A stretch of DNA of 64,000 bases. Origin: Isoetes taiwanensis. Its lineage: Eukaryota; Streptophyta; Lycopodiopsida; Isoetales; Isoetaceae. Both the position numbers and the translations under genes were made by a program. Of this stretch, positions 15,531 to 44,400 are shown one piece after another (positions within the stretch are counted from its first letter, which is position 1; each line of letters starts with the position of its first letter). The stretch lies in contig JAJEKV010000064.1 in the NCBI GenBank assembly GCA_021234155.1, positions 2,480,001 through 2,544,000 on the forward strand. The letters are read 5' to 3'. The notes under the pieces are model-generated. The model had not been told where the DNA came from and ran no database searches. It saw only the letters and a list, made by a program, of their open reading frames with translations.

Positions 15531-16740
15531 CATCCTTGGTATCTTCCATGTGAAACCGCAGTAATAAATCCTTGATGTATTTCGTTTGAGTGAGGTGAAG
15601 ATATGTAGAGTGCTGCCAAACTTCAATTCCTAAACAAAAATGTAGAAGACCCAAGTCTGTAAGCTCAAATGAATTACCAAGATCAGCCTTTAACTTCCAT
15701 ATTAGCTCTGTAGCATCTCCTGTGATGATAACATCATCGACATATAGAGTAAGAATACATATCCGACCATCATGATGCTTATAATAAAGGCTAGGGTCTT
15801 TATGAGATCTCTGAAATCATGCAGCTAACAGAAATGCATTGATTTTATGATTCCAGCACCTTGGAGCTTGCATCAAACCATATAAGCTTCGTTTGAGCTT
15901 GCAAACTAAGTGTTCTTGTCATTGTTTAATAAAACCAGCAGGCTGTTCCATGTAAATGGTCTCCTTCAAATCTCCATTTAAGAATGCACTCTTAAAGTCC
16001 ATTTGCCATATTGGCCATCCCTTGGCAGCTGCAAAAGCTAAGACTGCACAAATAGTGTCCATCCGAGCCACAGGAGCAAAAACATTGGTATAATCATAGC
16101 CAAACTTTTGATTATAACCTTTTGCTACTAAACGCGCCTTATGCTTAGCTATAGATCCATCTAAATTGAATTTAGTGCGAAAAACCCATTTGCTGCCAAG
16201 GACATTATGGTAGGATGGACGAGAAACCAAATCTCGAGTCTGCTGCTTAACATTGAAATTTCAATTTCCATGGCAGTAATCCATTCTTTATACTTGGCTG
16301 CTTGTTTAAATGTTTGGGGATCTTGATGCTCTTGGTATTTAGCCATCAAAGCGAAATTACATGTAACATTCTCCGGTGGTAAGCCAGCCAATCTCCTAGA
16401 TCTTCTTGGAGATGTCATAGGATCTGGAATAGCAGGAATAGATGCCAAAGAATAGTCAGCATCCAAAGAATTTGAGGAGAAATCACTCTCGTATAGAGGA
16501 AAGGAAACTCCCTGGCCTACAAGTGGAATGCCATGGTGATCATCTTCTCCGAAGATGGACACCAATGAAGAGCAACGGGATTATATGTTCTCCACCCAAA
16601 GTTCTAAGAAATTTAAAGTGGATTTTATATAGCTCAAAAGCATGTTCTTCTGTAAGAAGAAAAAATCTTATGGATGAACAGAAAATGAGAAGAATTCTAA
16701 GAACTACATGCTGCTCATTGGGCTGCATTAACAAATTCAA
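15531..16740 (-). pseudogene. Older Ty1/copia pol fragment (linker and reverse transcriptase)
   Basis: Read on the minus strand from about 16565. The pre-RT linker has SPRRSRRLAGLPPE. RT follows with GSKWVFRTKFNLDGSIAKHK, QMDFKSAFLNG and LKRSLYGL, then the catalytic YVDD box at about 15740 (LYVDDVIITGD), and LGIEVW...FHMEDTKD. The gene is then cut by the transposon at 15530 and resumes at 952. It has a frame change near 16230 and two stops around 15830-15925. Integrase and LTRs are not recognisable; the right boundary near 16740 is approximate. The linker gives an intact-looking proline/serine spacer typical of copia polyproteins. Confidence 0.85.
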
Positions 16741-27841: not shown

Positions 27842-28100
27842 CTCTTTTTGTCTCTGATTTTATTTTTTGTTCTACAGGTTAAAGATTCAGGTAGATTGGG
27901 GTTTTCGGCAGAGAAGACCTATCTTGGCTTTGGCAGTGCCAAATCGGCAGGATTATGGCCGATTTCATCCCTCCATAACTCTGTTTTCTTTTTATTTCAC
28001 AGGTTAAGCTTCAACCCATTCGTTTTTCAGCCCAGAGCAGACCGATTTGATATGCTTGGAGGATTCTGGCTTTTAATTGCTCTTAATCTATCTTAGTTAG

Positions 28101-29766
28101 TGTGACGTTCCAGGACAGTATACGGTCCCAGGACGTATACTGTACTGCCCCGTCACGCGTACACGCCACCCCGACTGACGTGTACGCCAACGTGTAGCTA
28201 GGCTAGTAGCCCTAGGGGGCAACGTGCAAGGAGTGTGCATTTATTAATGTGCACATTAAACAATGTGCACATTCACTTAGGTGCACATTTTCCCATATGG
28301 CCACTTCATGCCAAGTGGGCCACACCCATAGGTGCAATTAATGTGCACATCCTCCAATGTACACATTAATGTGGGCACACATTTCCATGTGGGCACATTT
28401 TGCCACCTATCCATTAAAGGCAAGTGGGCCCATTCCCAATTATCCCACATGCCTAAAGGGGATAATTGGAAACCCTAGCCAACCCCTTGTCTATTAAGGG
28501 AGGGAAACCCTAACTTGCCCAATTTTCGTTTCTAGGGTTTTGGAACTCTGTTTTGGCTGCCTCCACAGCCAAAACCGCCTCCCAGACTCTGCCTGAGAGA
28601 ATTGCACCCTTAGTTTCTCTTGATTCGAGCGTTTCAGCAGGATGGTCGAGCTCAGGTCAGGAGGAGTCCCTCAAGGATCGGGGGTATTTAGGCAATTTAA
28701 TAGCTTAAACCCTCCGTTAGCCATCGAATCGGTAGGGTTTAGCCTCTTAAATTGCCCATAGCAGCCCTCTAGATCTCTAGATAGCAGATTCTAACTAAAG
28801 AACCTAACTCTATGATGTAGATTAGATCTAGTTCTTTAGTTCTCTATGAAGTATATGGATGATGTATCTCTATGAACTCCTTGTATTGGGAAGGGGGGTA
28901 GAGACCCAAAGCTTTGTAGTTGATGCTCCTAGAGTAGCCTCTAGCACCTTGTAGATCAGAACATTGTACAAGAACCACACCAGGGTTGTGGGTGAAGGGG
29001 CAGGGACCGGCTAAGAAGGAGGTTCATGTCCCGACTCTTGAGCGATCCCTACGGTGTGTAAGGCCTACCAGGAATCATTGTGACTAGGTCTAATGGGTCA
29101 CCACTGAGTGCGGGTGAGGCATGGACTCGACAGAGTGAAGTGGTGTACACTTTCCAGTGGGGTTCGGTCGAATACACAGGCGGTGGCCCTCTAGTCACCT
29201 TGAGTCGGCATGTAGATCTCTGGAGGGAGTGATCCCTTCTGCCCCATCGGAACCGGGAGGATGAAACCTGTGAATAGCCCTTACGGCTATGCATCCCGCG
29301 GAACTCTGTCCCGACACTTTTCAGCCTACTCACGCAAAGTGTGCACGGGAGGGGCGGATGGAGTGGACAACCCTATGCCATGTTCATATGCCAGCCAAAT
29401 CCATTGCCATGAATTACATGCCCGCAAGGAACTCGGAGGCCCAAGCCGTCCGTCATTCCCTTGAGCCCGAGCCTTGGGTAGAACTCCCCATATGTATTGT
29501 GCTCACCTTGTTTATGCGGTGTATGATGGACCACCCTTCGAGGTGGATATATGCTTATGTTATATAACGACATGTATGTTTACGCTTCGCGACTAGGTAG
29601 GCCCCGAGGGGAGGCGGGGTAAAATGACCCCTTCACTCTTCCCAATGGAACCCGATCCACGGTTGCGGTGTTATGTGGAGGGCCCTCAGATCGGCATGGA
29701 GCCGGTATGGGGATGAACTCTGTTTGTATACGGTGAGTGCACCGTATACGAGTAGGGGACGTCACA
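28101..29766 (+). repeat. Chromovirus 5' LTR
   Basis: TGTGACGTTCC to GGGGACGTCACA. It nearly matches the 3' LTR except in the first roughly 95 bp, which are strongly diverged. Inside are iterated GTGCACATT motifs (28240-28400). A stretch with AACCCTA and TTTCTAGGGTTTTGG lies near 28465-28545, a plausible transcription-start environment. Confidence 0.93.
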
Positions 29767-29767
29767 G

Positions 29768-29781
29768 TGGTATCAGAGCCA
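29768..29781 (+). other. Primer-binding site, initiator Met-tRNA
   Basis: TGGTATCAGAGCCA, one base after the LTR, is the standard plant retrotransposon primer site complementary to the 3' end of initiator tRNA-Met. Confidence 0.95.
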
Positions 29782-29973
29782 AGTTCTTGGTGACCAAGAG
29801 CAAAGCACTGACCATGTTCCCAGTAGTACTAACTTGATAGGATCCTTAAACCTCGAAAAAATGGGAAAATTTTTTTCTCTTTTTTGTAGTTTTGCTAAGC
29901 TAGTAACAGTTAAAATGAATGAAAACGAAAAAAATATTAAGAATTGATGAGCCAACCTTCCAAAAGTAGGGTG

Positions 29974-30238
29974 GTCTCACACGTCGCGCCAGGGCAGATT
30001 TTGAGATTCTCAAAATCGGGCTGGGCGCAACGTGTGAGACATTCAGCTTAAACGCTTAAAAAGTCATAAATCACAGTAAAATAACGTGATAAATCTAAAT
30101 TTAAGCTAAGAATCATTAGAATTGGCATGTTACATATTTTAAAAGTACAAAATTTAGTAGTGGGTCCCACCATGTCTCACACGTCGCGCCAGGACAGATT
30201 TTGAGATTCTCAAAATCGGGGTATAGCAAATGTGAGAC
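29974..30238 (+). promoter_or_regulatory. Foldback pair upstream of the H3 gene
   Basis: Two foldbacks start at 29974 (67 bp) and 30174 (65 bp), 200 bp apart. Each is GTCTCACACGTCGCGCC, a spacer, the inner palindrome GATTTTGAGATTCTCAAAATC, then GGGCGCAACGTGTGAGAC (the second has a degenerate right arm). Outer arms, GCGCC/GGCGC and inner arms all pair, so each can form one long hairpin or cruciform. They precede a TATA box, so I infer a promoter role. Confidence 0.75.
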
Positions 30239-30312
30239 CTTGCTTAATTAGGGTTTTAGATGTTTTAAGCAACCCAAAAAGGTAGTTTAAAAGTTGACAT
30301 AAAATTGACCCC

Positions 30313-30320
30313 TATAAATA
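30313..30320 (+). promoter_or_regulatory. TATA box of the H3 module
   Basis: CCTATAAATAGACC lies 111 bp before the MARTKQ start codon, and the intervening leader has no ATG. The same layout recurs at 32290. Confidence 0.65.
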
Positions 30321-30423
30321 GACCTAGACCCCTCCCATTTCCACGTTCTGTCCTTAGAAAAATTGTTCGTGTCCGCCAAGGCGATCTTCCGGCGCTTAGC
30401 TCCGATCGACGAATCAGCAAGTG

Positions 30424-30582
30424 ATGGCCCGCACGAAACAAACTGCCAGAAAGCCTCGTCGAAGCGATTCATCCAGCGCCAGCGGCTCTGGCCTCTTTCA
30501 GAGAGTCCTTCAAGAGCGCCTTTTCCAGAAGGCGAATCTTCTTCGGCGAAGATACGGGGATCGGATCGGGCGACCCACATGA
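30424..30582 (+). CDS. Histone H3 tail exon-like start of the element's H3 protein
   Basis: The frame from ATG 30424 begins MARTKQTARKPRRSDSSSAS. Its first ten codons equal the universal histone H3 N-terminus, keeping R2, T3, K4, T6, R8 and K9; from residue 11 the sequence departs (PRRSDSSS instead of STGGK). As written it stops after 52 codons (TGA 30580). A neighbouring frame stays open to 30626 with a Ser/Pro-rich sequence, so a frameshift is possible. The same strand and module end in an H3 fold (31107-31700). I infer that tail and fold belong to one protein of about 420 residues, broken here by shifts or consensus errors. The leader has no earlier ATG after the TATA box. Confidence 0.85.
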   Translation: MARTKQTARKPRRSDSSSASGSGLFQRVLQERLFQKANLLRRRYGDRIGRPT

Positions 30583-30690
30583 ATCATAGGCGGCGGCCAG
30601 CCCGGACATCATGCATCAAATCCTAGAGGAGATCGCGGTGGAGGAGGAGGAGAGGACCGAGGAGCAACGGGAGCCGAGGGCAGCCAATAG

Positions 30691-31071
30691 TTGAAGAGCA
30701 GCTCAGGATCGGAGACCCACCTACGGGGAAGAACGAGGGGAGGGAAGAAAGCTGGCCTAACCAACTTAGCCCCCGCAAGAAGCGCAGATCTTGCGCGCTT
30801 CATCCGCAAGTACGAGGCCAAGGAGCGCCGTCGTGAGCAAAGGACGAAGAGTCGGGAAGACGACCCGACCACAGCCAGCGGGCCAAAGAAGAGGAAGGCT
30901 AAAGCCATCAAAGCGGGCAAAAGAAAGGTTGTGAGGGTTGGTAAGCGAGGAACGAGGATCAACATCAACGAACCATCAGGAGAAGAGACCCCGCCTTCTA
31001 CCGACGCGATTGGACGAAGACTACGGCTCGGCATTGAGATGGAGCGAGTTCGTCAAAACCCCCTTTTGTAG
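30691..31071 (+). CDS. Basic linker region of the H3-like gene
   Basis: This 126-codon frame lies in the same phase as the tail but is separated from it by TGA 30580 and TAG 30688. It is highly basic (KKRKAKAIKAGKRKVVRVGK near residues 68-87) with helical charged segments (ARFIRKYEAKERRREQ), and ends at 31071. I know no family for it. Between tail and fold, an H1-like or nuclear-localising basic linker is a reasonable reading. An overlapping frame (30938-31174) continues with DEDYGSALRWSEFVKTPF, suggesting another shift before the fold frame begins. Confidence 0.5.
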   Translation: MKSSSGSETHLRGRTRGGKKAGLTNLAPARSADLARFIRKYEAKERRREQRTKSREDDPTTASGPKKRKAKAIKAGKRKVVRVGKRGTRININEPSGEETPPSTDAIGRRLRLGIEMERVRQNPLL

Positions 31072-31106
31072 AGAAGGAAGTGCCCCAAAGTTAGACAGCA
31101 GTAGCT

Positions 31107-31700
31107 TTGGTAGTAGCACAGCAGGAGGAGGCCGGACAGGCGGTGAAGCCCCCACCGTTCCCGACGTGGGATAGAGTTAAAGCCCCGCGGCCACAACGGG
31201 AGGCATATGTGATAGACCCCGGCCAAGGTCTATCGAAGAGGATCAGGGAGCACAACACCTACATGGAGAAGTGGGAGGCATACAATGCCTACTACCAAGA
31301 ACACAGGGTGAGAACGATTGAAGGCGGACACCCGACGAGGAGTCAGACCCTGAAGCCCCCTCCACCAAAGCCCAAGCCTCCCAGAGCACCAGGAAAGAAG
31401 CGGGCCGGCAAGAAGAAGTTGGAGAACAGAGCCCTCAAGGAAATCCGGCACTTCGAGGAGAAGTCTGGACTCTTGATCCCCCGGGCACCGTTTCAACGTT
31501 TGGTCCGCGAGGTTACGCAGGAGTATAATACAGACATGCGGGTGACGGATGAGATGCTGTTGTGCTTACAGGAAGCAGCAGAAGCGAAAATAGTGCAGCA
31601 TTTTGAAGATTCGACGGCCTGCACGGTACACGCAAAGAGGGTCACCCTCATGAGGCAGGATATGTATCTTGCCAGGCACATCAAGGGAGAACGCCCTTGA
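31107..31700 (+). CDS. Histone H3-fold protein encoded by the chromovirus
   Basis: A 197-codon frame. Residues about 1-105 are a proline- and lysine-rich linker (KPPPPKPKPPRAPGKKRAGK). Residues about 107-196 are a complete H3 fold: ALKEIR (alpha-N), PFQRLVRE (alpha-1), LQEAAEA...FED (alpha-2), HAKRVTLM...D, LARHIKGERP (alpha-3 and C-terminus). By eye about 47 of 92 positions equal canonical H3. Loop 1 has canonical length and the end is GERP, unlike centromeric CENH3, whose loop 1 is longer. It pairs with H4 in nucleosomes in known biology. Possible roles here are packaging of element DNA or marking chromatin at integration sites. A poly(A)-signal-like AAATAAGG and AATATAAAG follow the stop. 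Confidence 0.92.
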   Translation: MVVAQQEEAGQAVKPPPFPTWDRVKAPRPQREAYVIDPGQGLSKRIREHNTYMEKWEAYNAYYQEHRVRTIEGGHPTRSQTLKPPPPKPKPPRAPGKKRAGKKKLENRALKEIRHFEEKSGLLIPRAPFQRLVREVTQEYNTDMRVTDEMLLCLQEAAEAKIVQHFEDSTACTVHAKRVTLMRQDMYLARHIKGERP

Positions 31701-31844
31701 ACTAATTGTAAATAAGGAACAATTTTGTTAATATAAAGAATTTTTGTGTAATTAATGTGTCTGATCTAGCTTAATTAAGTTAAGTTAGAGAATTCTAGTC
31801 TTTTGTTTTAGTTAATTTGGAGCTTTGAGCAAAATTGAGACGAT

Positions 31845-32110
31845 GTCTCACACGTCGCGCCAGGACAGATTTTGAGATTCTCAAAATCGGGTTGGGCGCA
31901 ACGTGTGAGACCATGCCCAAAAGTGCCCAAAACAGCTCCAAATCGACCAAATAAGGGGTCAATTCTGCCCCTAATCGACGAGTTTAGTGGAATTACGACC
32001 TTAAATCACCCAAATTGATTAAGTCTAGCCCAATTGGGACCCATGTCTCACACGTCGCGGGGACGTAAAAATGAGATTCTCAAAATCGGTCTGGGCGCAA
32101 CGTGTGAGAC
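31845..32110 (+). promoter_or_regulatory. Foldback pair upstream of the second module
   Basis: Foldbacks at 31845 (67 bp) and 32045 (66 bp) are again exactly 200 bp apart and share sequence with those at 29974 and 30174. The last has a changed left arm (CGCGGGGACGTAAAAATGAG). Confidence 0.75.
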
Positions 32111-32289
32111 CTCGCATCATTTTCTTCACCAAATGATCTCCAGTTTGCTGCAATAGGTTCATTAGTGTTCTTAGCATGCCTTAAACCAAAAATTAGCCTC
32201 CAAACACTGAATTGCACCTCCTAATAGGTCAGAATCGCCCAACTCCAGTGAATTCTAGGTCATCCAAAAATTAGGGTTTTTCACTTTTC

Positions 32290-32297
32290 TATAAATA
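32290..32297 (+). promoter_or_regulatory. TATA box of the second module
   Basis: TCTATAAATAGGCC lies 120 bp before ATG 32410. The following leader shares GGCGATCTTCC with the H3 module leader (30380 and 32349). Confidence 0.65.
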
Positions 32298-32409
32298 GGC
32301 CATCACTTTTCATTGGGCACCCCGCAAGTTTGCTCTCCCCTTTGCTTAGGCGATCTTCCAGCTCCCGAGGCGCTCGCATCCGTTTGATACTCCCTTCCTT
32401 GCTAGATCA

Positions 32410-32826
32410 ATGGCCACCGCCGACTTCACGCCGATGGTACGGTGCCCGGTGCCCATGCTGGCGAGATGTCAATGACATCTTCCAAGTCTTTGGCAAAGAA
32501 ATTGACATCAAGCTACGCTAAATGCAACCCCAAAGATATAGGCAAGTGCTAGCGAGTTTCAAGCTAGGGTAGGACCTTCCCTAGTTCAGGTTCCCCTTGC
32601 ATAGGCTATTTTGTCCCCGCCCATCCCTTCAAGCAGCCCAGGGGATGTCCCCAACATCGCCAAGTACCTAACCAACAAAGCGCCAAAGGCTGCCGGACTA
32701 CATGGTCCCCGACAGCCAACGGGACCAAGTACTTCTCCTACACCGGCCTTAGCCATCTTCTTATCCCACCGTGTCGACAACCCAACGGGGCAACCTCTAT
32801 CCCTCCGATGGAGGTGGACCCCATAG
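32410..32826 (+). CDS. Start region of second module protein, frame-broken
   Basis: The first ATG after the TATA box opens MATADFTPMVRCPVPMLARC and stops after 21 codons. A further frame (32611-32826) is proline/serine-rich and ends just before the long frame at 32848. Around 32830, GCGGTCTGAAGAAGAAG breaks what would otherwise read into EEEERMLCNIARARKR. I read these as the N-terminus of the 354-residue protein with small shifts, but separate or non-coding leaders cannot be excluded. Confidence 0.4.
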
Positions 32827-32847
32827 CGGTCTGAAGAAGAAGAGCGG

Positions 32848-33912
32848 ATGCTTTGCAATATCGCCAGAGCGAGGAAGCGTAAAACGAGGAAGAAGAGGAG
32901 TCCGACGAAGATAAGTACACGGCAACAAGCACAACAGGAGATGATAAACTTCGAGCAGAGCCGGCAGAACATCAGGGTTGCTCCCCCACTCGGGTTAGGC
33001 ATCACAAGCCTAGCCCCGATCATCATCAACGGAGAGGAATATTTACTCCTCAGCGACATCCAGAACCTTCCCGAGTGCAGGGAGAGGGAGCTCAGATTGG
33101 ATGAACTACTCCACCAGCTACGGCAGTCAGACTTGGACGACTTCATCGTCCGGGGAGCCTCGGACTTTCCGCTTCAAGTGAGGGAAGCCGACACTTATAC
33201 AGGAGAGGCGACTTCAGATATACAGGCCTACAGCAGTATCAGGCAAATGATGGAGGAGCAAGAGCTGCCAACGGAGGAGGAGTTCCTCGCCCTCCAGGAA
33301 CAGATGGGGATCCGTGGGAAGACCACGAGCATTTTAATGCCGAGGCCTTCGACACCACCTCCATCAAGAGGAGAAGGAATCGACCTCAGACGAATCGACA
33401 CCATAATCGAAGACTACAGGGAACTCACCGAGATAGGGGTCGACGAATACGCGGGACGACATAGAACAGGAGGCCAATCCAGCGGAGAAGCTTCAGCGAC
33501 GCACAATGACAGGTCCCTGAGGTACTACCTGCCACTACTGCTAGATGGGAGGATAACGGTAGTACACCGCAAATTCAGCCCCAGGGGCGAGGAAGGAGTG
33601 TTCATGCTGATTGCACTCTCAGGCTTCGGCAGGCATGCTCGAATAGCAGCAAATGTCGACTATGCTGTCCTGGTCAAGAGAGCAATGGCACTTGACCTCT
33701 TCGACTTCGCCATACCACATCGACGTCAGGCGAGATTAGCGGTGGCTGTGGCTCTCACATCCGACCGCAGAGTGGAAGACTTGGCAAGAGCCTTGCAGGG
33801 CGGCTCGTCAGCAAGCGTCTTCAGGAACTTGGGTCATTCGGTAGGAACGGCCCAAGTTAAGAAGTTCCTTGAGGACAACCCGTCTTACCGGCGATTTCAA
33901 GACTACTCTTGA
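32848..33912 (+). CDS. Unrecognised 354-residue protein of the chromovirus
   Basis: A long open frame with codon texture like its neighbours. Residues about 7-25 are strongly basic (ARKRKTRKKRSPTK), compatible with nuclear import or nucleic-acid binding. The middle is acidic and helical (RERELRLDELLHQLRQSDLD; QMMEEQELPTEEEFLALQEQ). A proline stretch near 165-172 separates a C-terminal 120-residue domain (RYYLPLLLDGRITVVHRKFS ... ALTSDRRVEDLARALQGG). I do not recognise it: it is not gag, RT or integrase. It shares promoter architecture with the H3 gene, so the two are probably co-regulated. AT-rich DNA with ATAATATATGAATACAAT after the stop may be its terminator. Confidence 0.7.
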   Translation: MLCNIARARKRKTRKKRSPTKISTRQQAQQEMINFEQSRQNIRVAPPLGLGITSLAPIIINGEEYLLLSDIQNLPECRERELRLDELLHQLRQSDLDDFIVRGASDFPLQVREADTYTGEATSDIQAYSSIRQMMEEQELPTEEEFLALQEQMGIRGKTTSILMPRPSTPPPSRGEGIDLRRIDTIIEDYRELTEIGVDEYAGRHRTGGQSSGEASATHNDRSLRYYLPLLLDGRITVVHRKFSPRGEEGVFMLIALSGFGRHARIAANVDYAVLVKRAMALDLFDFAIPHRRQARLAVAVALTSDRRVEDLARALQGGSSASVFRNLGHSVGTAQVKKFLEDNPSYRRFQDYS

Positions 33913-34276
33913 TCCCGGAGACTTTTTGTACTAAAATATTACATAATATATGAATACAATCTCTGCTGCACTTTAAATGTTTTGTTGATGTAATTTTGCC
34001 CCACAGCTATACCAACAAACATAAACAATGCAAGAGAACAAGGAAAACTAACCATATAGCCATGAATTACTTGTGTATGCAGTTAGAGGCCTAGGCTCAG
34101 GGGAACGACAACGCCAAGACCTTAGGGAAGAGCAGACCCGCCCAGACCACCCCGGCAAGGAACCTATTTGAAGATATGGAACCCATGACCCGAGAGAGGA
34201 GGAGATATCCCGGATGAGGGGACGGACCTTGAGCAGATAAAGGCTCATTAGCCGCACAAGCGGGGAGCGGGTTTCG

Positions 34277-35400
34277 GTGGGCAATGCTCAATTACCACAA
34301 GCATCAGCTCCGGAAAACAGGAAGGGACAAGAAGAGGAACAAGAGAAGAAGATCCCAGCTTCGGACTCCTCCGACTCAAGCTCAGAGTCGACTTCCGGAC
34401 CCGAGGAAGAAGAAGATCAGGCCCAGGACCTAACAGGACTTAAAGGCAAAGGAACACCGAAGAGGGAAGGCAGAGGAACACCCCGGATGGACAACAAAGA
34501 GACACTGGGGCCTCGACTACCGGAAGAAGGTAGATTCCGTGATTGGGCAATGTATGGAAGGCGGGAATCGAACAGTTCTCTGGGAGAACAAAATGTTTAG
34601 AAGCTAAGCATGGCTGGACGAAATGAGTGAGTACGGCAATGCTTATGGCATGAAGGATAAAGACAAAGGAAGAGTGGCAAATGACCAACTTGAAAGGAGC
34701 CGCACGGATTTGGTGGAAGGGTTATGCAAAGGCACATGGCTTAAGCAGGGATGCTTGTAAGTTCAGAAAGTTTGCTAAAGCCTTCAAGCGCCATTACGTC
34801 CCGAGGGAACATAAGTCTAGTATGATGCAGCAGTTCTACAGGTTGCAGCAAGGCAACAAATCTGTCCAGAAGTATACAGAGGAATTCATGAGGCTGAGGC
34901 TGTATGTGCCGAAATTGGGTGAGAAGCATGCAGTAGAAAGCTATATTGAGGGGCTGAATGAGGAGATCCGCAAGCTTGTGAGGGCAATAAACCCTAAGAC
35001 AGTATCAGAAGCAGAGTCCAAGGCTATAAGCTTGCAAGGGACGGGACCTCAGAATAGCGGGCAGAGGCAGCAGCATTTCCAGGACAAAGGCAAGGCGACA
35101 GGAAGCTATAGCCCTAGAGCAGCCAGTCCAGGTCCAGCTAGAGCCCCATATGGTGGCAACCAGGGGAAACAGCAGGAGAAGAAGCAGGTGTCCTTCAAGG
35201 ACAAGCAGGAGGGGTCAAACTACTCCAAAGCAGTGCGATCCTTTTTGCAGGCGATGCCCAAGGAAAAGAGACAGGAGTGCATAGAAAAGCAGCTTTGCTT
35301 CAGGTGCTTCCAGCCAGGCCATAGGACAGCGAACTGCCCCTACGTCATGAGTGCAGCGTTAGCGGAGTTGGGAGATTGGGACACTCTGTCTGACGACGAC
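34277..35400 (+). CDS. gag: gag (capsid and zinc knuckle), frame-shifted
   Basis: The N-terminal acidic part is open at 34277-34600 (SDSSDSSSESTSGPEEEEDQ). After a shift near 34600-34680 the capsid-like part follows (ARIWWKGY, FAKAFKRHYVP, MMQQFYRLQQG, VESYIEGL), typical of the gypsy retrotransposon gag domain. A CCHC zinc knuckle (CFRCFQPGHRTANC) lies at about 35300-35340. Gag forms the particle that packages element RNA. From 34681 it is continuous with the protease, so Gag-Pol is one frame there. Confidence 0.9.
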
Positions 35401-36133
35401 GGCGAGGAAGCCCGCGACTACATTCAGGGTGAGTGTCATATCTTTGCCGCAATAGATACAGAGCAAGCAGAGAGCCAGTATAAAGTAATTTCCACAGTAG
35501 GGAAGGCCAAGGCCAAGTCCTTCATAGTCTTGATAGACTCGGGAAGTAGCCATAACTTTGCATCCCCCAGAATGGTTCAAATGTTGAAGTTGAAACCACT
35601 AAAGTCAAAGCCAAGGCCCGTTGTCTTAGCAAGTGGTGCGATAAAAGCGATTTGCAGCAAGAGAATTAACCGACATCGACTTGCCGAGGGATTAAGATCC
35701 AGATGGGGGCAGAAGTAATGGGCATTGGCAAGTACGACTTGATCATAGGAATGGAGTACCTTGGACCAGCAGGGGCCATTATCGATTGTGGAAAGCGGAA
35801 GGTGACCTTCCCAACACCCGACGGCAAGATCATCGAGATCACAGGTAAAGAAGTTGTTCCCATCATGCAGTGCATGTCTTCTAAGCGGCTGTTCAAGTGC
35901 ATCAAGAGCGAGCAGGTGGCATACATCTTCAAGCTTGAGATTGAGGAGCCAGAATCAGAGGGAAGCAAGGAAGACAGGGTGCTCAGCAAGTTGCCGAAGC
36001 AAATAGCTCAGCTAATCACGGAGTTCCATGATCTCTTTCCAGATGAGATCAAGCAGCTTCCTCCTTATAGGGGAGTCGAGTGTGAGATAGCACTTTCGAA
36101 CAGGGAGCAAAGCCGACAAGCAAGGCTCCACTC
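35401..36133 (+). CDS. Aspartic protease region and linker
   Basis: The retropepsin-like core reads [20 protein letters not shown] with the catalytic DSG at about 35540 (a family-typical D-S/T-G). The frame stops at 35718. The second half resumes at 35703 with [20 protein letters not shown], the usual end of the domain, then continues as linker to 36137. The overlap of the two frames shows one shift near 35690. Another shift near 36095 separates it from RT. The protease matures Gag-Pol. Confidence 0.87.
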
Positions 36134-37171
36134 ATGACGACGCAGGAGTTGACGGAGCTGAAGAAGCAATTGCAGGAGTTGCTCGACCTAGGTTTCATTA
36201 GACCTAGTGTCTCGCCATTTGGAGCGCCCATTCTCTTTGTAAAGAAGAAGGATGGCAGTTTAAGGATGTGCATAGACTATAGGCAGTTGAACAAGCACAC
36301 CATTAAGAACAAGTATGCGCTCCCCAGATCAGATGACTTGATGGATCAACTCCAAGGTGCAAAGGTCTTCTCCAAAATCGACTTAAGGTTAGGTTATCAT
36401 CAGATTAGGATAAAAGAAGAAGATATCCATAAGACCGCCTTCAGAACGCGGTATGGGCATTATGAGTTCACGGTAATGCCTTTCGGCTTATCAAATGCCC
36501 CCGCGACGTTCATGAGGCTCATGAACGACATCTTTAGGGAGTTTTTAGACACCTTTGTGATTGTATTCTTTGATGACATTTTGGTGTATAGCAGATCCCT
36601 TGAAGAGCACGTACAAGACTTAAGGAGAGTGCTGGAGAAGTTGAAGAGGCACCAGTTGTACGCCAAGTTGTCGAAGTGTCACTTCGCAACGGAGAAGGTG
36701 GAATACCTTGGTCATGTGATCTCAGCAGAAGGAATCTCGACGGATCCTGCCAAGATCGAGGCCGTCATTCAGTGGCCGGCGCCGAAGAATGTGCATGAAG
36801 TCAGAAGTTTTCTAGGCCTAGCAGGGTACTACAGGAAGTTCGTGAAGAACTTCGCTAAGATAGCGGCCCCGTTAACAGACTTGACGAGGGCGGAAAAAGT
36901 GAAAGATTGGGCAGAGCATTGGCACAAGAAAGCCCAAGCAGGGTTTGAATTGTTGAAGGAAGCCTTAACAACCGCCCCAGTCTTAACCCTGCCGGACCCG
37001 GAGAAAGATAAGCTTGTAGCCACAGATGCGAGTAAGATAGCTACAGGTGCAGTGCTCATGCAAGAAGAGTGTGTGGTAGCGTATGATTCCAGGAAGATGA
37101 ACGACGCCGAAACGCGCTACCCGACGCATGATCAAGAATTGCTTGCGGTTGTCGTGGCATTAAGAATTTGA
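36134..37171 (+). CDS. Reverse transcriptase and RNase H start
   Basis: RT blocks appear in order: [56 protein letters not shown], the catalytic [12 protein letters not shown] (36560-36595), and [19 protein letters not shown]. The connection domain [20 protein letters not shown] follows, then RNase H with its first catalytic Asp in [15 protein letters not shown] and [11 protein letters not shown]. The frame ends at 37171 inside RNase H (LRI for the expected L-W-RHYL). ATG 36134 is only the first Met of the fragment; the natural protein is a Gag-Pol continuation. Confidence 0.93.
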
Positions 37172-37687
37172 GGCACTATCTTTTTGGGAAGGAAGTTCCG
37201 GTTGGATATGCACTCACCATGAGCCTCGGTATGTATTCACGCAACCACACCTCAACCCGAGGCGTAGAAGATGGATGGAGTTCCTTGAAGAGTATGACTT
37301 TGATATAGTCTACAAGCGGGGAAGCTCAATGTGGTAGCGGGCACTTTCAAGGCATCCACGACAACTAGAGTGCATTGCAATCCATTTCGGCGCTCTCCGG
37401 CTGACTTTGGTAAGAAGATTGAAGAGTCCTTGCCAACAGATATGGATTTCAAGGAAGTATGGGCAAGCCTCTCTAGGGAGGCTAGAACAGATAAGGAGCG
37501 GGAAGCCTTTAAACATTATAAGAAGGAAGGCAACCTGTTATACCATAAGAACAAGTTGTGCGTACCCGAATCATCAGGTGTAAGGAAATTGATCCTCCAC
37601 GACACGCACAACAGCCCAATAGCTGGCCATGCGGGATTCATGAAAACATATTTCAAAGTCTTGGCGCCTATTATTGGCCAGGAATGA
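37172..37687 (+). CDS. RNase H end and integrase zinc-binding start, frame-broken
   Basis: Between 37172 and 37330 the expected tether ([28 protein letters not shown]-like content) is spread over frames, implying at least two shifts. From 37331 one frame covers the end of RNase H (LNVVAG...) and the integrase HHCC start, with His residues in ILHDTHNSPIAGHAGFMKTY. It stops at 37687, just after a shift that moves the rest into the next frame. Confidence 0.8.
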
Positions 37688-38862
37688 AGAAGCAAGTAGC
37701 TCGCTACATCAGAGAATGCCAATTATGTCAGCAGACGAAGGCAGAGCAGCTTCGAATTCCAGGAGCATTAGAGCCATTGGCGGTGCCAAACGCTAAGTGG
37801 GAGGTGATTAGCATGGACTTCATCACAGGACTCCCAAGGACCGTAAGAGGGAAAGATGCTTTGATGGTAGTAGTCGACAAGTTGTCGAAAATGGCACATT
37901 TTGTGCCTTGCAGGACCACAGATACAGCTATGGATACAGCGAAGCTCTTCACCAAAGAAATTTTCAGACTTCATGGCATGCCAAGGGAGATTATCTCCGA
38001 CAGGGATCCGAAGTTCATGAGTGCCTTCTGGCAAGACCTCTTTACGACAATTCAGACGAAGCTATCCATGAGCACGGCATATCATCCTCAGACGGATGGC
38101 CAAACGGAGCGGACCAACAGGATTTTAGAAGACATGCTACGAAACTATGTCTGGAATAAGCAAGGTATGTGGGAAGAATTTATTCACTTGGTGGAGTTTG
38201 CATACAATAACGGCTATCAGTGCCTAACTCCAGACACTTGGCACAACCCCGTGTCAAAAGTGGAAGTTTCGCAGCAGATGTTGGCCGATATGCAGCAGCT
38301 TGTGGAAGAGGTTCGAGGGTATTTGCTAGCAGCAAGAAGTCGGCAGAAGAGCATCGCCGACAAGCATCGAACAGTAAGGGAGTTCAAAGTTGGAGATGAT
38401 GTTTGGCTCAAGATCAAGGTGAAGCGGTGGCTTCGAATCGGGGAATTGCAAAAGCTTGCTCCAAGGTGGGCTGGACCTTTCAGAATAGTCAAGAGAGTAG
38501 GTAATCAATCCTACAAGCTAGACTTGCCAGCACACCTAAAGATTCATAAGGTCTTCCACGTGAGTTTGTTGAAGAAGCACACTCCAAATCCAGACGAGGT
38601 CTTGGACTCTCCAACATTGTTGGAAATGACGGAGGAGCAGCTGGAAATAGTTCCGGAATTGATTCTTGATAAAGCTTTCAAGAAAACGAGGAGATCAGAA
38701 TTCCTCCAGTATTTGGTCAAGTGGAAACACTTACCAGTGGAAGACGCGACATGGGTACTTAAGAAAGATTTGGTAAAGCAGTACCCACAGTTTATGGAGC
38801 AATGGGACGGCAAGGTCATCTCCGAAGAAATCGGCTCAGGCATGTCGATTTGTGTAGATTAA
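37688..38862 (+). CDS. Integrase with C-terminal chromodomain
   Basis: An open frame that begins before 37688 (in phase from 37558). It shows the zinc-site cysteines (ECQLCQQTK), then the DDE core with Asp in ISMDFITGLP, Asp in IISDRDPKFM and Glu in TDGQTERTNRILEDML. After NNGYQ about 15-20 residues expected in the family are missing in frame, leading straight to TWHNPVSKVEVSQQMLADM. The GPF/Y-type module (APRWAGPFRIVKRVG) follows. Near the end RSEFLQYLVKWKHLPVEDATW is a chromodomain, defining a chromovirus. In other chromoviruses this domain recognises H3 lysine-9 methylation and guides insertion; that is inferred here. Confidence 0.92.
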
Positions 38863-39742
38863 TTCTATGTATAGTTTAGATTAATCTACGCATGCAACCT
38901 ATGCTAGGTATGGGTCGCATGCGTTGTGACCGATGATGAGACCACTACGGTGATCTCTAGGGCGTGGTGTAATGTCAAGGTAGGCATGACCGGCGTTTGG
39001 GCAGAAAGTGGAAGGTAGATTAGAAAGTCTACTACGTTCCCCGGAAGTAGGCGACCTCGAGAAAGGAGGTCATGAAGGAATGCACTGATAGGAAAAACAC
39101 CTCTAGCCCCATATATGCTTTGATAGGAGGAATCGGGGCCTTCACGCCCCATATATGGGAAGGACCTATCCCTATTTGGGCAACTAGGGTGTAGGCATGA
39201 GCGGCATATAGGCATATAGTATTTGTCTCCACGGACCATAATGGAAGATTCACCCTCTTCCCCTCGCCGGGAGATTAGCCATGCATCCATGTAGATAGGT
39301 GGGGTGGTCACCATATAACCAAAATTTTATTAATAATTAAAATGGTACTAGCGTAGTGTCGACACATGTAGGCCAATAGGCTCGGGAGGGCAAGGAGGTC
39401 GAGCTCTGAAGACTTGCAACACAAATTTTGTTGGAATGTGTTGCAAGGAATGAAGAATACCTCAGGGCGTTAATTTTAATTTTGATAAACTTAATTGTCA
39501 TGTTAAGTGAATTATTGAGTAACTTTGTTTTAATGATGTTATGAATTGATAAGTTATTTCATAATATAATGGCGTGATAATGTCCTAAAAAAAAAAAATA
39601 ATAATAATAATAATAATATTACCTTAAGGTAATCTTAATAAATGTGTAAGTACTATAGTAGTTATAGCATGTATCAGGTTGATTGCAGGTTAGGATGATC
39701 CCAAGGTGGGGAGACCCACGATCTTTGGGGACGACATCATTT
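38863..39742 (+). other. Chromovirus 3' non-coding region
   Basis: No supported gene. It contains CCCCATATATG repeats (39108, 39158), an A-run with an (AAT)n microsatellite (39590-39617) and a first purine motif CAAGGTGGGGAGA at 39703. Confidence 0.7.
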
Positions 39743-39756
39743 CAAGGTGGGGAGAA
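39743..39756 (+). other. Polypurine tract
   Basis: AAGGTGGGGAGAA directly precedes the 3' LTR and would prime plus-strand DNA synthesis. A near-copy lies 40 bp upstream. Confidence 0.85.
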
Positions 39757-41415
39757 TGTGGCGTTCGGGGCGATTATCACGGTCCGGGGCGTATCTTATC
39801 TTGCCGATCGCAGCGTACCGCGCCACCCGGCCCGGCGGTATGCCAAGCGTGTAGCTAGGCTAGTAGCCCTAGGGGGGCAACGTGCAAGGAGTGTGCATTT
39901 ATTAATGTGCACATTAAACAATGTGCACATTCACTTAGGTGCACATTTTCCCATATGGCCACTTCATGCCAAGTGGGCCACACCCATAGGTGCAATTAAT
40001 GTGCACATCCTCCAATGTACACATTAATGTGGGCACACATTTCCATGTGGGCACATTTTGCCACCTATCCATTAAAGGCAAGTGGGCCCATTCCCAATTA
40101 TCCCACATGCCTAAAGGGGATAATTGGAAACCCTAGCCAACCCCTTGTCTATTAAGGGAGGGAAACCCTAACTTGCCCAATTTTCGTTTCTAGGGTTTTG
40201 GAACTCTGTTTTGGCTGCCTCCACAGCCAAAACCGCCTCCCAGACTCTGCCTGAGAGAACTGTACCCTTAGTTTCTCTTGATTCGAGCGTTTCAGCAGGA
40301 TGGTCGAGCTCAGGTCAGGAGGAGTCCCTCAAGGATCAGGTATTTAGGCAATTTAATAGCTTAAACCCTCTTTTAGCCATCGAATCAGTAGGTTTAGCCT
40401 CTTAAATTGCCCATAGCAGCCCTCTAGATCTCTAGATAGCAGATTCTAACTAAAGAACCTAACTCTATGATGTAGATTAGATCTAGTTCTTTAGTTCTCT
40501 GTGAAGTATATGGATGATGTATCTCTATGAACTCCTTGTATTGGGAAGGGGGGTAGAGACCCAAAGCTTTGTAGTTGATGCTCCTAGAGTAGCCTCTCTA
40601 GCACACTGTAGATTCGGCCTGTGAACCACACCGGGTTGTGGGTGAAGGGGGCCAGACTGGCTAAGAAGGAGGTTCATGTCGACTCTTGAGCGATCCCTCG
40701 GTGTGTAGGGCCTACCGGGGAATCATTGTGACTAGGTCTAATGGCTCACCATCGAGTGCGGGTGAGGCATGGACTCGACACACCCGTGAAGTGGTGTACA
40801 CTTTCCGATGGGGTTGGTCGAATCACAGGCGGTGGCCCTCTAGTCACCTTGAGTCGGCATGTAGATCTGCGGAGGGAGTGATCCTTCACCCCCCATCGGG
40901 CTGGGAGGATGAAACCCGGGAATAGCCCTTACGGCTATGCATCCCGTGAGGGCTCTGATCAGTCCCGACACTTTTCAGCCTACTCGCAAAGTGTGCGCGG
41001 GGAGGCGGATGGAGTGGACAACCCTATGCCATGTTCATATGCCAGCCAAATCCATTGCCATGAATTGCATGCGCAAGGAACTCACGGAGGCCCAAGCCGT
41101 GAGTCATTCCCTTGAGTCGGAGCCTTGGGTAGAACTCCCCATATGTATTGTGCTCACCTTGTTTATGCAGGTATGATGGACCACCCTTCGAGGTGGATAT
41201 ATGCTTATGTTATATACTGACATGTATGTTTACGCTTCATGACTAGGTAGGCCACGAGGGGCGGGGTAAAATGACCCCTTCACTCTTCCCACTTTGGAAC
41301 CGATCCGCGGTTGCGGTGTTATGTGGAGGGCCACATATCGGCATGGAGCTGGTATGGGGGATGAACTCTGTTTGTATCACGGTGAGTGCACCGTATACGA
41401 GTAGGGGACGTCACA
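39757..41415 (+). repeat. Chromovirus 3' LTR
   Basis: Starts TGTGGCGTTCGGGG and ends GGGGACGTCACA, followed by target copy GTTAG. From about 39850 on it matches the 5' LTR closely; the first roughly 95 bp are only loosely similar. Small insertions and deletions versus the 5' LTR cluster between 40590 and 41360. Confidence 0.93.
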
Positions 41416-44400
41416 GTTAGGTTTTCAACAAAGAACAGATAATATAGATACTGCATTCACAGGAGATGTCGGGAGGATGCAAAACGGCTCTATAGCTAAT
41501 TCCTTCTCTGTTTTAACATTTTAAGGCAGTAGCCATGGCGGATTTACAGCAGAAAACATGGTTCAGCAAAGGCACAGATCATATCCTTGTTTTCTTTTTC
41601 AGATTCTTTTCATTCATTTACATTTCTTAACGTATCCTGATTCAACAAGACATAAATTCTTTGTTCTAGATTTAAACTTTATGATAGATTTCATAGCATT
41701 CAATAAATTTACAAAGATTTCCTTCAGTCAAATCCCGGTAGAAGACTGGCTTCCACATTATCATGCTAATGTGTTTCTTTGCTGTCAAATACATATGCTA
41801 GCATAGAATGGAGGAGCTTGGGAAACGTGTGACCACATGGAAACAGCCTGCAACAGCATTGACGACAAGGTACACTTCTTTATTGATGGGGACAAAAGCT
41901 AGTCACTGCCATGTACGAACTTGATATTCTGGGAAATGCCAGATAGGGACAAGGGAAATGCCCTTGCTGTACTCAAGTTAGATAAAACAATGAACTTAGA
42001 GAAATTGTGCTTTGGATTCATTCATACTTGATCTTTGCTTCAAACAATCTTACATTAGATCCACACGGCATTGATCCACACTGCAAACCAGGAGAGGCAA
42101 AATGGCTCAAAGCTTATACCAATGCAGGCAGAATCAAAGCCCACCTTGCCATGTTAAATTAAGTGTATGCATTGGTTTCTAATGCACTAAACACTGCTTT
42201 ACTCCAGAGCATAGCTTGCAAAAGTCTAAAGTCCAGTAGACAGCAGGGGTTTTCGACAAATAGAACGAAGAAGTTGCTTCATAGGTTTGTTGCTCTATTT
42301 TGAAGATTTTATTTGTTTCTTATTCTTATTCACCTTCATTTTTGCCGGATTCGCATGGAAGCTGCAATTCTTACCTTAGATTTTGCATTGACTAATTATT
42401 TTAAGAGAGCAAGGTTAACATAAATTGTTTTCGCAGATCCAATATTTATGTGTAGGCCTTATCTCTTGCATCTATCCATTGACATCACCGAGGTATTTAA
42501 AGTCTGAAGCATTGTCTATAGAGGAGTATTGAAGGTAGATTCAACAGGTTGATTGGCTTCATCGAAGGTTCTCTCATGGTAATGTGGTCCAGGTCCCATC
42601 TCTTGCATCCATTCATCGATATCATCGAGGTATCTATTTAAAGTTTGAAGCACTGTTTATAAAGAAGTATTAAAGCGTCAAGTTGGAAGGTAGATTCAAG
42701 TCTTGTATGGATTTAAATCATTGTTGCTGCTTAAATAACATGTTGAATAGCTTCATTGAAAGCTGGATGTTCTCATGGTAATGTGCTGTTGTGATGTATC
42801 CATCATATTTGTGGTGTCCATTTAATCATGCATAAGGCCTTGACCTTTGAAGTCGAACTCTAAAGCATTTGAAACTCCTAGGCACAGCGAGCATGTTACC
42901 ATAGTATTGTGAAAGAGGCAGATAACGAGGTAGAATTTTTGTTGAATTTCATAAACCAACAAAATTAACACCTTAAGGAACCCTGTTCAATGTGAAACAC
43001 TGCTTAATCTCTGGTTTTGAGGTTGCATTTGGGGTTTTGGATGGCATTATTACGGGGCCTCCAAAGTTCTATCCTGGATGGCGTATTCAGATACGGAAAA
43101 GATGAGCAAAATGGTTGTCATTGCACTGTTGATGCAAATTCGACATGTTGTTTTAAAGTGAAATTCCCGAATCACTTTAAAGACAGCAGAGCTGATCTTA
43201 CAAACTTGCTAAATATATTCTATGAAGGATGGATTGTTCAGAGCAAAACAACATATATTGATCAAGTTACTCCATAACATTTGTTTATTTATTTCCTCCT
43301 TTACAGATATCATGTCAATGCTTGCCGTATACATTGAAGATTGAGGAACATCACACATACAACAAGAATATGTGACCATGTTTTACATGCTAAAATAAGA
43401 CAAACCATATATTAATTTGATAGATGAGTGATGGTGCAATTCTTTTGTGATAATCCGGAGTGCTTACCACAACTTACAATTGGTAGTAGTAATCATGATG
43501 TTGTGCACATTAATAGGCCATGCTTGTGGAAAATATTGCTATAGATTACCATGTTTATAGCATCATCAAGCAAATGGAATTGAAGATCTCAAGCTAACAG
43601 GGCTCACGCTGCTTATTCAAGAATATAACATATAATTTGTAGCAATATTTCCATATTTTCCTCTTGCTCCAAAGCAGTTCCACCACCATGACAAAAAGCT
43701 CCTTTAGTTCATTAGGAAACTGCATGCAAGCAATGAAGAACATTCAAAAGGGGCCTTCTTTTGTAGCAACACATACGTGTAGCTTGTCACGACGATTTTG
43801 CCAACTTTAAATTCAAAACCACGAGAAAAAGTTCACATGTTCTAGCGAGTAGCATGCACAATGGGCTACCCATTGCTCCTATGGCTGTTGCACCTACCCA
43901 TTGATTTTATGTTGCATCATATTGTCCTTCAGATGGCGGATCCTAGCCTTACCTCTGACACTATGAGGTGAAGAGCTGTCTACAGTAGATAACTATCCTG
44001 AATAAGATTAATAAGGTCTAAATTTGTCCTTCAACGCCATTATTGAGAGCTTTATGTTATATTGCATAATCATTCATTCATATGATGATTCTAAATAGTA
44101 ATATCTATTAAGCGTGGAGTTTGACACTGGAAATGTACCTTACAATACCACTGATATTTAAATCCATAGTCAATGCCAACTAATTTATAGCTTCATGTGA
44201 CGATGTTGTTGAAACCATATTGAACCACTGGATTGAAAAGTATTCAATTGCATTCGTAAACGGCATCTTTACAAATCACTATGTTAATTAAAGCTCAACA
44301 CATCCATTAGGGCATTCATCAATTATTAACGTGTTTTGCTTTAACCATCAATGACATGAGCTAGCTCATGCAATTCATGGTCTGACTTATATATTAATAC

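What the first reader, a model, noticed from the sequence alone, without database searches (positions are those of the whole stretch)
31107..31700. A Ty3/gypsy chromovirus encodes a histone H3
The sequence shows a complete H3 fold (PFQRLVRE, LQEAAEA, HAKRVT, LARHIKGERP) in an open frame inside the LTRs, in sense orientation, between the primer site and gag. Roughly half of 92 core residues match canonical H3, including structural ones, while loop 1 and the C-terminus are canonical rather than CENH3-like. I know of no standard plant retrotransposon gene content that includes a histone. The element could package its DNA into its own nucleosomes or place its H3 at integration sites.
Basis: partly seen in the sequence, partly recalled or inferred. 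Interest (0 to 1): 0.97.

Follow-up and report, generated by a model that had tools for sequence, protein, structure and literature searches.

The report
Jumping gene carrying its own histone
A large family of jumping genes in what is almost certainly the quillwort genome carries a gene for a modified histone H3, the protein that packs DNA, and the pattern of mutations shows that the protein has been kept working, so a retrotransposon seems to have taken over a piece of its host's chromatin machinery.

Summary
Confirmed and larger than reported. The window holds a 13.3-kb Ty3/gypsy element (28101-41415, TSD GTTAG, chromodomain integrase). Between primer site and gag lies an H3 gene that starts at 30424, not 31107, with the exact H3 tail MARTKQTARK, runs through a ~300-residue linker and ends in an H3 fold (PDB H3, E 9e-28). 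This copy's frame is broken; other copies encode ~420 residues uninterrupted. The host assembly matches Isoetes taiwanensis in size. It has 868 exact matches to a class-specific H3 peptide (control 0). In 41 copies the fold has dN/dS 0.086 (shifted frames 1.7 and 3.2; RT 0.16; gag 0.26). The H3 gene and a second unknown gene ("X") each have a TATA box and paired hairpins. A less diverged H3-fusion class in the same genome is followed by an X homologue at the one locus examined, so H3+X looks like a conserved cassette. I found no report of a retroelement-encoded histone in the open-access library searched. Most likely function, inferred: the element puts its own H3 into nucleosomes to change chromatin in its favour. 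Untested: expression, H4 pairing, chromatin incorporation, and whether class II has gag-pol.

The parts
28096..28100 (.). target-site duplication GTTAG, left (right copy 41416-41420)
   Evidence: flanks
28101..29766 (+). 5' LTR, 1666 bp
   Evidence: 115 of 1642 aligned sites differ from the 3' LTR, 38 of them in the first 100 columns
29768..29780 (+). primer-binding site TGGTATCAGAGCC (initiator-tRNA-Met type, recalled)
   Evidence: sequence
29974..30240 (+). two ~67-nt hairpin repeats (GTCTCACAC...GTGTGAGAC) upstream of the H3 gene
30313..30320 (+). TATAAATA box, 111 nt before the H3 ATG; a TATAAATA is present before the H3 gene in 20 of 20 fetched copies
30424..31700 (+). H3-fusion gene (frame broken in this copy; about 420 codons in copies with an uninterrupted frame)
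30424..30453 (+). H3 tail MARTKQTARK
   Evidence: exact in 25 of the 35 copies where the start was found (40 examined)
31413..31697 (+). H3 histone fold
31845..32110 (+). two more copies of the hairpin repeat, upstream of X
32290..32297 (+). TATAAATA box, 120 nt before the X ATG; present in 17 of 20 fetched copies
32410..33912 (+). gene X (broken near its start in this copy; 511 and 508 aa in L016 and L028, whose frames are uninterrupted), unknown fold
34681..35718 (+). gag (capsid, zinc knuckle) and start of protease; in other copies the frame begins further upstream
35703..36137 (+). rest of protease (weak Pfam match, E 0.016)
36134..37171 (+). reverse transcriptase and RNase H
37558..38862 (+). 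integrase with C-terminal chromodomain
39746..39756 (+). polypurine tract (own reading)
   Evidence: sequence
39757..41415 (+). 3' LTR, 1659 bp

Best explanation
SHOWN: a high-copy Ty3/gypsy chromodomain element encodes a histone H3 variant that has been maintained as a protein during the family's spread. The gene consists of the exact H3 N-terminus ARTKQTARK, a long faster-evolving linker with an NLS-like basic stretch (own reading), and an H3 fold. With the neighbouring gene X it stands between primer site and gag; each of the two genes has its own TATA box and hairpin repeats. INFERRED: the protein enters the nucleus, pairs with host H4 and is built into nucleosomes as a substitute H3. It keeps most of the core, the H3-H3' bundle residues C110, H113, R116, D123, L126 and the DNA contacts R69, R72, R83, K115, R116, T118. 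It has changed residues at the DNA entry/exit and elsewhere on the DNA side (41-46, R49K, R63P, K122Q), and the linker replaces tail residues 10-40, so K14, K27 and K36 are gone while K4 and K9 remain (with P in place of S10). Such nucleosomes should hold DNA more loosely and could not carry K27 or K36 marks. I think the element uses them to keep element-bearing chromatin open for expression or reintegration, with X as a co-factor (perhaps a dedicated chaperone or loader). Roles of single residues are recalled from nucleosome structures.
For: H3 identity. Element anatomy and TSD. Same position in other copies. At least 868 motif copies. Purifying selection with frame-shift and non-coding controls: (fold 0.086 [0.051-0.137], non-coding 0.69). 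Tail kept exactly in 25 of 35 found starts, 40 examined. Residue table. Promoter-like motifs. H3 followed by X in a second, diverged class (one locus examined); class II fold dN/dS 0.031 in 5 copies. Precedent for a viral histone that joins host nucleosomes and changes expression by its N-terminal tail: bracovirus H4, PMC5423620 (abstract and outline seen).
Against: No expression, protein or chromatin data. The copies for dN/dS were picked by H3 match, which favours conservation (fold 0.030 in the 20 best, 0.093 in 20 from the end of the list by the first, rougher script); nearest-neighbour pairs give a median of 0.25. 46 of 95 fold positions differ from plant H3, so nucleosome assembly is not certain. 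K9 is kept, so the protein could still be marked for heterochromatin. The AF2 model is of modest confidence and no complex with H4 was modelled. Class II lacks the ARTKQTARK tail, so the tail is not essential to every H3+X pair. 3 of 9 RT matches in the covered range had no motif match within 30 kb upstream and one had it only at 17 kb. X has no recognisable fold.
Confidence: 0.45

Rival explanations
1. The H3 works on the element's own cDNA: it packs the double-stranded cDNA or marks the pre-integration complex, so that the DNA enters the nucleus already chromatinised or is steered to chosen chromatin.
For: The gene lies in the element upstream of gag; the fold keeps DNA-contact residues R69, R72, R83, K115, R116 (roles recalled); the linker has basic stretches.
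Against: Internal TATA boxes suggest separate nuclear transcription rather than gag-coupled supply; among the seven element frames scanned with Pfam only P0001 matched a core histone, and P0122, the X homologue, matched none. The chromodomain lacks the usual first aromatic cage residue.
Confidence: 0.18
2. The tail is the active part: ARTKQTARK is a histone mimic that occupies writers and readers of H3K4/K9 methylation, and the fold only anchors or dimerises it.
For: The first ten residues are exact in 25 of 35 found starts while the linker varies.
Against: The fold is more constrained (0.029) than residues 1-32 (0.232) in the same 14 copies; class II has the fold without this tail.
Confidence: 0.15
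3. The fold serves as a protein-protein module unrelated to nucleosomes, for example pairing with X or Gag in particle assembly.
For: H3 is followed by X in two diverged classes (class II seen at one locus); about half of the fold positions have changed.
Against: The H3-H3' bundle and loop-2 DNA-contact residues are kept (roles recalled), as expected of a nucleosomal role.
Confidence: 0.16
4. A host H3 gene was transduplicated as passive cargo and amplified by hitch-hiking.
For: Plant LTR elements do capture host gene fragments (recalled); many single copies, including this one, are broken.
Against: dN/dS 0.086 against 1.7 and 3.2 in shifted frames and 0.69 in the spacer; 868 copies of the same decapeptide, with 21 different spellings among the rows typed; TATAAATA kept in 20 of 20.
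Confidence: 0.04

Closest known systems
Viral histones of DNA viruses (bracovirus H4; histones of Marseilleviridae and Medusavirus; H3-like phycodnavirus proteins with ~170-residue N-terminal extensions): PMC9145170 (passages), PMC5423620 (abstract), listing
   Same: A selfish genome carries a core-histone gene; bracovirus H4 joins host nucleosomes and changes expression by its N-terminal tail; two H3-like proteins of phycodnavirus MAGs have long N-terminal parts of no known homology.
   Different: Those are DNA viruses. The review has no occurrence of 'retrotransposon' or 'retrovirus'. Here the carrier is a reverse-transcribing LTR element with an H3 fusion, next to an unknown gene X.
Plant chromoviruses (Ty3/gypsy with integrase chromodomain)
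   Same: LTRs, PBS, gag-PR-RT-RH-INT order and a C-terminal chromodomain.
   Different: Two extra genes with their own TATA boxes between PBS and gag.
CENH3 and H3.3 variants
   Same: H3 fold with a diverged N-terminal region; class I and class II have L90 as plant H3.3 (H3.3 signature recalled).
   Different: Not a host single-copy gene; the insertion lies between tail residue 9 and the fold; no loop-1 insertion (gap-free alignment).

Membership tests
Ty3/gypsy chromovirus | LTRs with target-site duplication, PBS, gag, protease-RT-RNaseH-integrase order | tested here: met
Ty3/gypsy chromovirus | chromodomain at the integrase C-terminus | tested here: met
   Pfam Chromo 3.3e-10, residues 365-417 of the 434-aa frame; PDB chromo domain protein 1, 4.4e-6
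Ty3/gypsy chromovirus | RT phylogeny places it in a named chromovirus clade | not tested
   no reference RT set was at hand
H3K9me-reading chromodomain (CHD_I) | three aromatic cage residues (Y24, W45, Y48; PMC3350952, passages) | tested here: not met
   the first is replaced and the W kept (own reading of the alignments); resembles CHD_II as described
Histone H3 | H3 histone fold by profile and structure comparison | tested here: met
Histone H3 | canonical N-terminus ARTKQTARK | tested here: met
   exact in 25 of 35 copies with a detectable start, 40 examined; not in the five class II copies read
Histone H3 | 135-residue length with the tail directly joined to the fold | tested here: not met
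   398-439 residues, ~300-residue linker
Histone H3 | forms nucleosomes with H4 | not testable with these tools
   needs reconstitution
CENH3 | longer, diverged loop 1 (recalled) | tested here: not met
   gap-free alignment to H3 through loop 1
Passive transduplicated cargo | no selection on the captured frame | tested here: not met
   copies chosen by H3 match

The most novel reading that the evidence does not exclude
Lycophyte LTR elements carry an old, self-contained chromatin cassette: an element-owned H3 variant plus a dedicated partner X, both from internal promoters. The cassette re-writes nucleosomes on element or target chromatin as a counter-silencing or reintegration device, and exists in at least two diverged classes (class I with the H3 tail kept, class II with a new ~300-residue N-terminal domain in its place).
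Probability: 0.35. Interest if true: 0.97.

Novelty: categorically new. Interest (0 to 1): 0.93.

Why it matters
Host silencing of transposons works through histones, and this element encodes one of its own. If the protein enters chromatin, it is the first retroelement-encoded nucleosome component that I know of, and it makes a concrete question testable: can a transposon change its silencing by supplying a histone with an altered body and tail? It also gives a natural series of hundreds of H3 copies (868 motif matches) showing which H3 residues can change once the host's constraints are lifted. If one counts DNA-virus histones as the same kind, it is still a new variant (reverse-transcribing carrier, H3 beside an unknown partner gene).

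Tried and rejected
REJECTED. Host pseudogene inserted once. CENH3 (no loop-1 insertion). Chance ORF. TTG 31107 as the gene start (tail at 30424). Self-reading by the element's own H3K9me chromodomain was considered and lowered, because the chromodomain is of the cage-poor type.

LED NOWHERE. Viral-contig scans with P0001, P0085 and P0122 found no relative; the class II protein found one distant H3-like locus (L058). AF2 of X was useless (pLDDT 35). X has no Pfam, PHROG or PDB-profile match and one database homologue, P0122. The search with a full-length class I protein returned, in the 120 best rows listed of 2485, H3 multi-fusions and H3-like proteins aligned over 29-48% of the query, no homologue of the linker. 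Whether class II lies in an element with gag-pol: the 3 kb after one copy hold X but no gag, and more letters were not available. A first dN/dS script mixed wrong-frame matches for gag and RT and was replaced. A wrong start position was corrected. A script failed and was repeated. The deep forks of the H3 tree are not resolved: class I is one clade (100/100), the one distinct class II row falls among ordinary H3s, so one capture or two cannot be decided.

I therefore lowered the best explanation from 0.50 to 0.45 and the novel case from 0.40 to 0.35, and raised three rivals by 0.01-0.02.

PAPERS. Seen: search listings; passages of PMC3350952, PMC8566536, PMC9145170, PMC10541799; abstract and outline of PMC5423620. 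'Not in print' rests on these searches of an open-access library only; the find tool counted no occurrence of a word beginning with histone in the main text of either Isoetes genome paper.

Full report
WHAT IS THERE. The window lies in a 1,658,258,908-base assembly of 1110 contigs. Isoetes taiwanensis was published at 1658.30 Mb in 204 scaffolds plus 909 unplaced contigs (PMC8566536, passages), so the host is almost certainly that quillwort; the tool gave no name. The element runs 28101-41415 (13,315 bp) with 1666- and 1659-bp LTRs and the 5-bp duplication GTTAG on both sides. The LTRs differ at 115 of 1642 sites, but unevenly: 38 differences fall in the first 100 alignment columns and none in columns 100-499 (one gap there), so dating from the mean is unsafe. 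Pfam finds capsid/zinc knuckle, protease (weak), RT-RNaseH, integrase core and a chromodomain in order.

THE H3 GENE. AF2 gives helices in the H3 order with modest confidence, and the Foldseek rows shown are nucleosome entries. The gene starts upstream at ATG 30424 with MARTKQTARK, identical to the H3 tail; in this copy the frame is then broken. Copies elsewhere read without a stop from such a start to the end of the fold: 15 of the 20 fetched 10-kb copies, chosen partly for long frames, with lengths 398-439 aa (one of them, L014, is open but shifted in its middle and was dropped). The host assembly was built from nanopore and Illumina reads, so some breaks could be assembly errors (inference).

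A FAMILY, NOT AN ACCIDENT. P0001 scored 150 matches (cap; 11,247 first-look candidates), 79-100% identical. A 30-base degenerate pattern for the class-specific peptide KRVTLMRQDM (plant H3 has KRVTIMPKDI) gives 444+424 = 868 exact matches, and 0+0 for the reversed control. In 20 of 20 fetched copies blastn finds the middle and C-terminal parts of the gene, in 19 of 20 the tail region, in 18 of 20 an LTR before it; in 14 of 20 X, gag and RT follow in order within the 10-kb piece, and the other six are truncated or rearranged there. Starting from RT (117 scored matches), 35, the window included, have a top-150 H3 upstream on the same strand within 30 kb: 28 of these at 3.8-5.5 kb, 2 at 8.4-8.6 kb, 5 at 16-26 kb; control placements gave 1 pair. 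In the contig range covered by the motif listing, 5 of 9 RT matches have the exact motif within 10 kb upstream, one at 17 kb, three none. So many RT relatives carry it; that all do is not shown.

SELECTION. Over 41 copies (40 plus the window) the fold has dN/dS 0.086 (codon bootstrap 0.051-0.137), the pre-fold part 0.111. For comparison, X gives 0.204 (19 copies), gag 0.264 (18), RT 0.161 (14), the window counted in each. The same fold DNA read in the +1 and +2 frames gives 1.72 and 3.24, and the spacer after the gene 0.69 (20 copies). Caveats: copies were chosen by H3 protein match, and nearest-neighbour pairs have a median of 0.249, as expected if single copies decay after insertion. In 14 uninterrupted copies the fold gives 0.029, the pre-fold 0.086, the linker 0.234, residues 1-32 0.232. 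The first ten residues are exactly MARTKQTARK in 25 of 35 copies where the start was found (40 examined); 3 have MARTKQTTRK and 7 differ more.

RESIDUES. The commonest class I residue equals plant H3 at 49 of 95 fold positions. Kept in 40 or 41 of 41: R69, R72, R83, C110, H113, K115, R116, T118, D123, L126, I130. Changed: positions 41-46, R49K, R63P, K64R, L65A, K79N, K122Q, R129H. Tail residues 1-9 are kept, S10 is P, and the linker stands in place of residues 10-40 (own reading; the aligner extends weakly into the linker). The functional meaning of these positions is recalled from nucleosome structures. My reading is that tetramer formation and inner DNA contacts are kept while the entry/exit grip is weakened, that K27 and K36 are lost, and that K4 and K9 remain.

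OWN PROMOTER-LIKE MOTIFS AND GENE X. A TATAAATA box lies before the H3 gene in 20 of 20 copies and in the window (104-113 nt before the ATG in the 18 copies where the script matched the ATG), and before the X gene in 17 of 20 and in the window (121-124 nt in the 16 where the X ATG was matched); ~67-nt hairpin repeats, mostly paired, stand upstream of both genes in most copies. X reads 511 and 508 aa uninterrupted in L016 and L028. It has one database homologue, P0122 (501 aa, about 50% identical, from a 2-kb contig of unnamed origin), and no match to Pfam, PHROGs or, as a profile, PDB.

A SECOND CLASS. Six were fetched. All six end in the same fold; five read as an uninterrupted 409-413-aa protein and one (L053) is interrupted. 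In the one scanned (L052) the N-terminal part has no Pfam match. Their fold has dN/dS 0.031 in the 5 uninterrupted copies. In the one case where the next 3 kb were fetched (L059), they encode a distant X homologue (tblastn with P0122 E 3e-10, window X E 4e-9, with one internal stop). So H3 followed by X is seen in both classes. No gag was seen in those 3 kb; whether class II is itself an LTR element is open. Proteins of a third kind, with a near-canonical fold and an altered or extended N-terminus (P0085 begins MARTKQTARK; the other six do not), come from unnamed public contigs of 10-117 kb. They share H53, F54 and C91 (6 of 6 tabulated) and K49 (5 of 6) with class I (F54 also in class II), but their context could not be fetched.

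MECHANISM. Shown: an element-borne H3-fusion gene, under constraint, with promoter-like motifs. Inferred: nuclear expression, pairing with H4, incorporation into nucleosomes, and an effect favourable to the element. The precedent for the last two steps is bracovirus H4, whose tail changes host expression after joining nucleosomes (PMC5423620, abstract).

NOVELTY. The viral-histone review PMC9145170 has no occurrence of retrotransposon or retrovirus. Listings from searches for retrotransposon-encoded histones showed no report of one (titles and abstract starts seen), and the two Isoetes genome papers have no occurrence of histone in their main text. The library is open-access only, so this is not proof of absence.

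Noticed in passing
window 28101-28200 against 39757-39856: The first 100 columns of the two LTRs differ at 38 sites while the next 400 have no mismatch; looks like conversion, recombination or an assembly patch.
   Followed up: partly
window 29974-30240 and 31845-32110: A ~67-nt imperfect hairpin occurs twice before each of the two extra genes, and in most copies; possibly a shared enhancer or insulator.
   Followed up: partly
window 51799-54056: Two overlapping frames that look like one subtilisin-like protease without introns, split by a frame change (own reading, not searched).
   Followed up: no
window 16161-16565 (-): Frame with Ty1/copia-like polyprotein residues (own reading, not searched).
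   Followed up: no
L058 1054-1338 (IMG/VR contig IMGVR_UViG_3300033144_007251): A 4-kb viral contig encodes a distant H3-like protein (37% to the class II fold).
   Followed up: no
P0085, P0081, P0075, P0083, P0096, P0108, P0121 (public contigs): A group of similar H3 proteins with extended or altered N-termini from unnamed contigs, sharing derived residues with class I; perhaps repetitive elements too.
   Followed up: partly
window 37558-38862, residues of the chromodomain: Chromodomain of the cage-poor plant type although the element codes for an H3 with an intact K9 region.
   Followed up: partly
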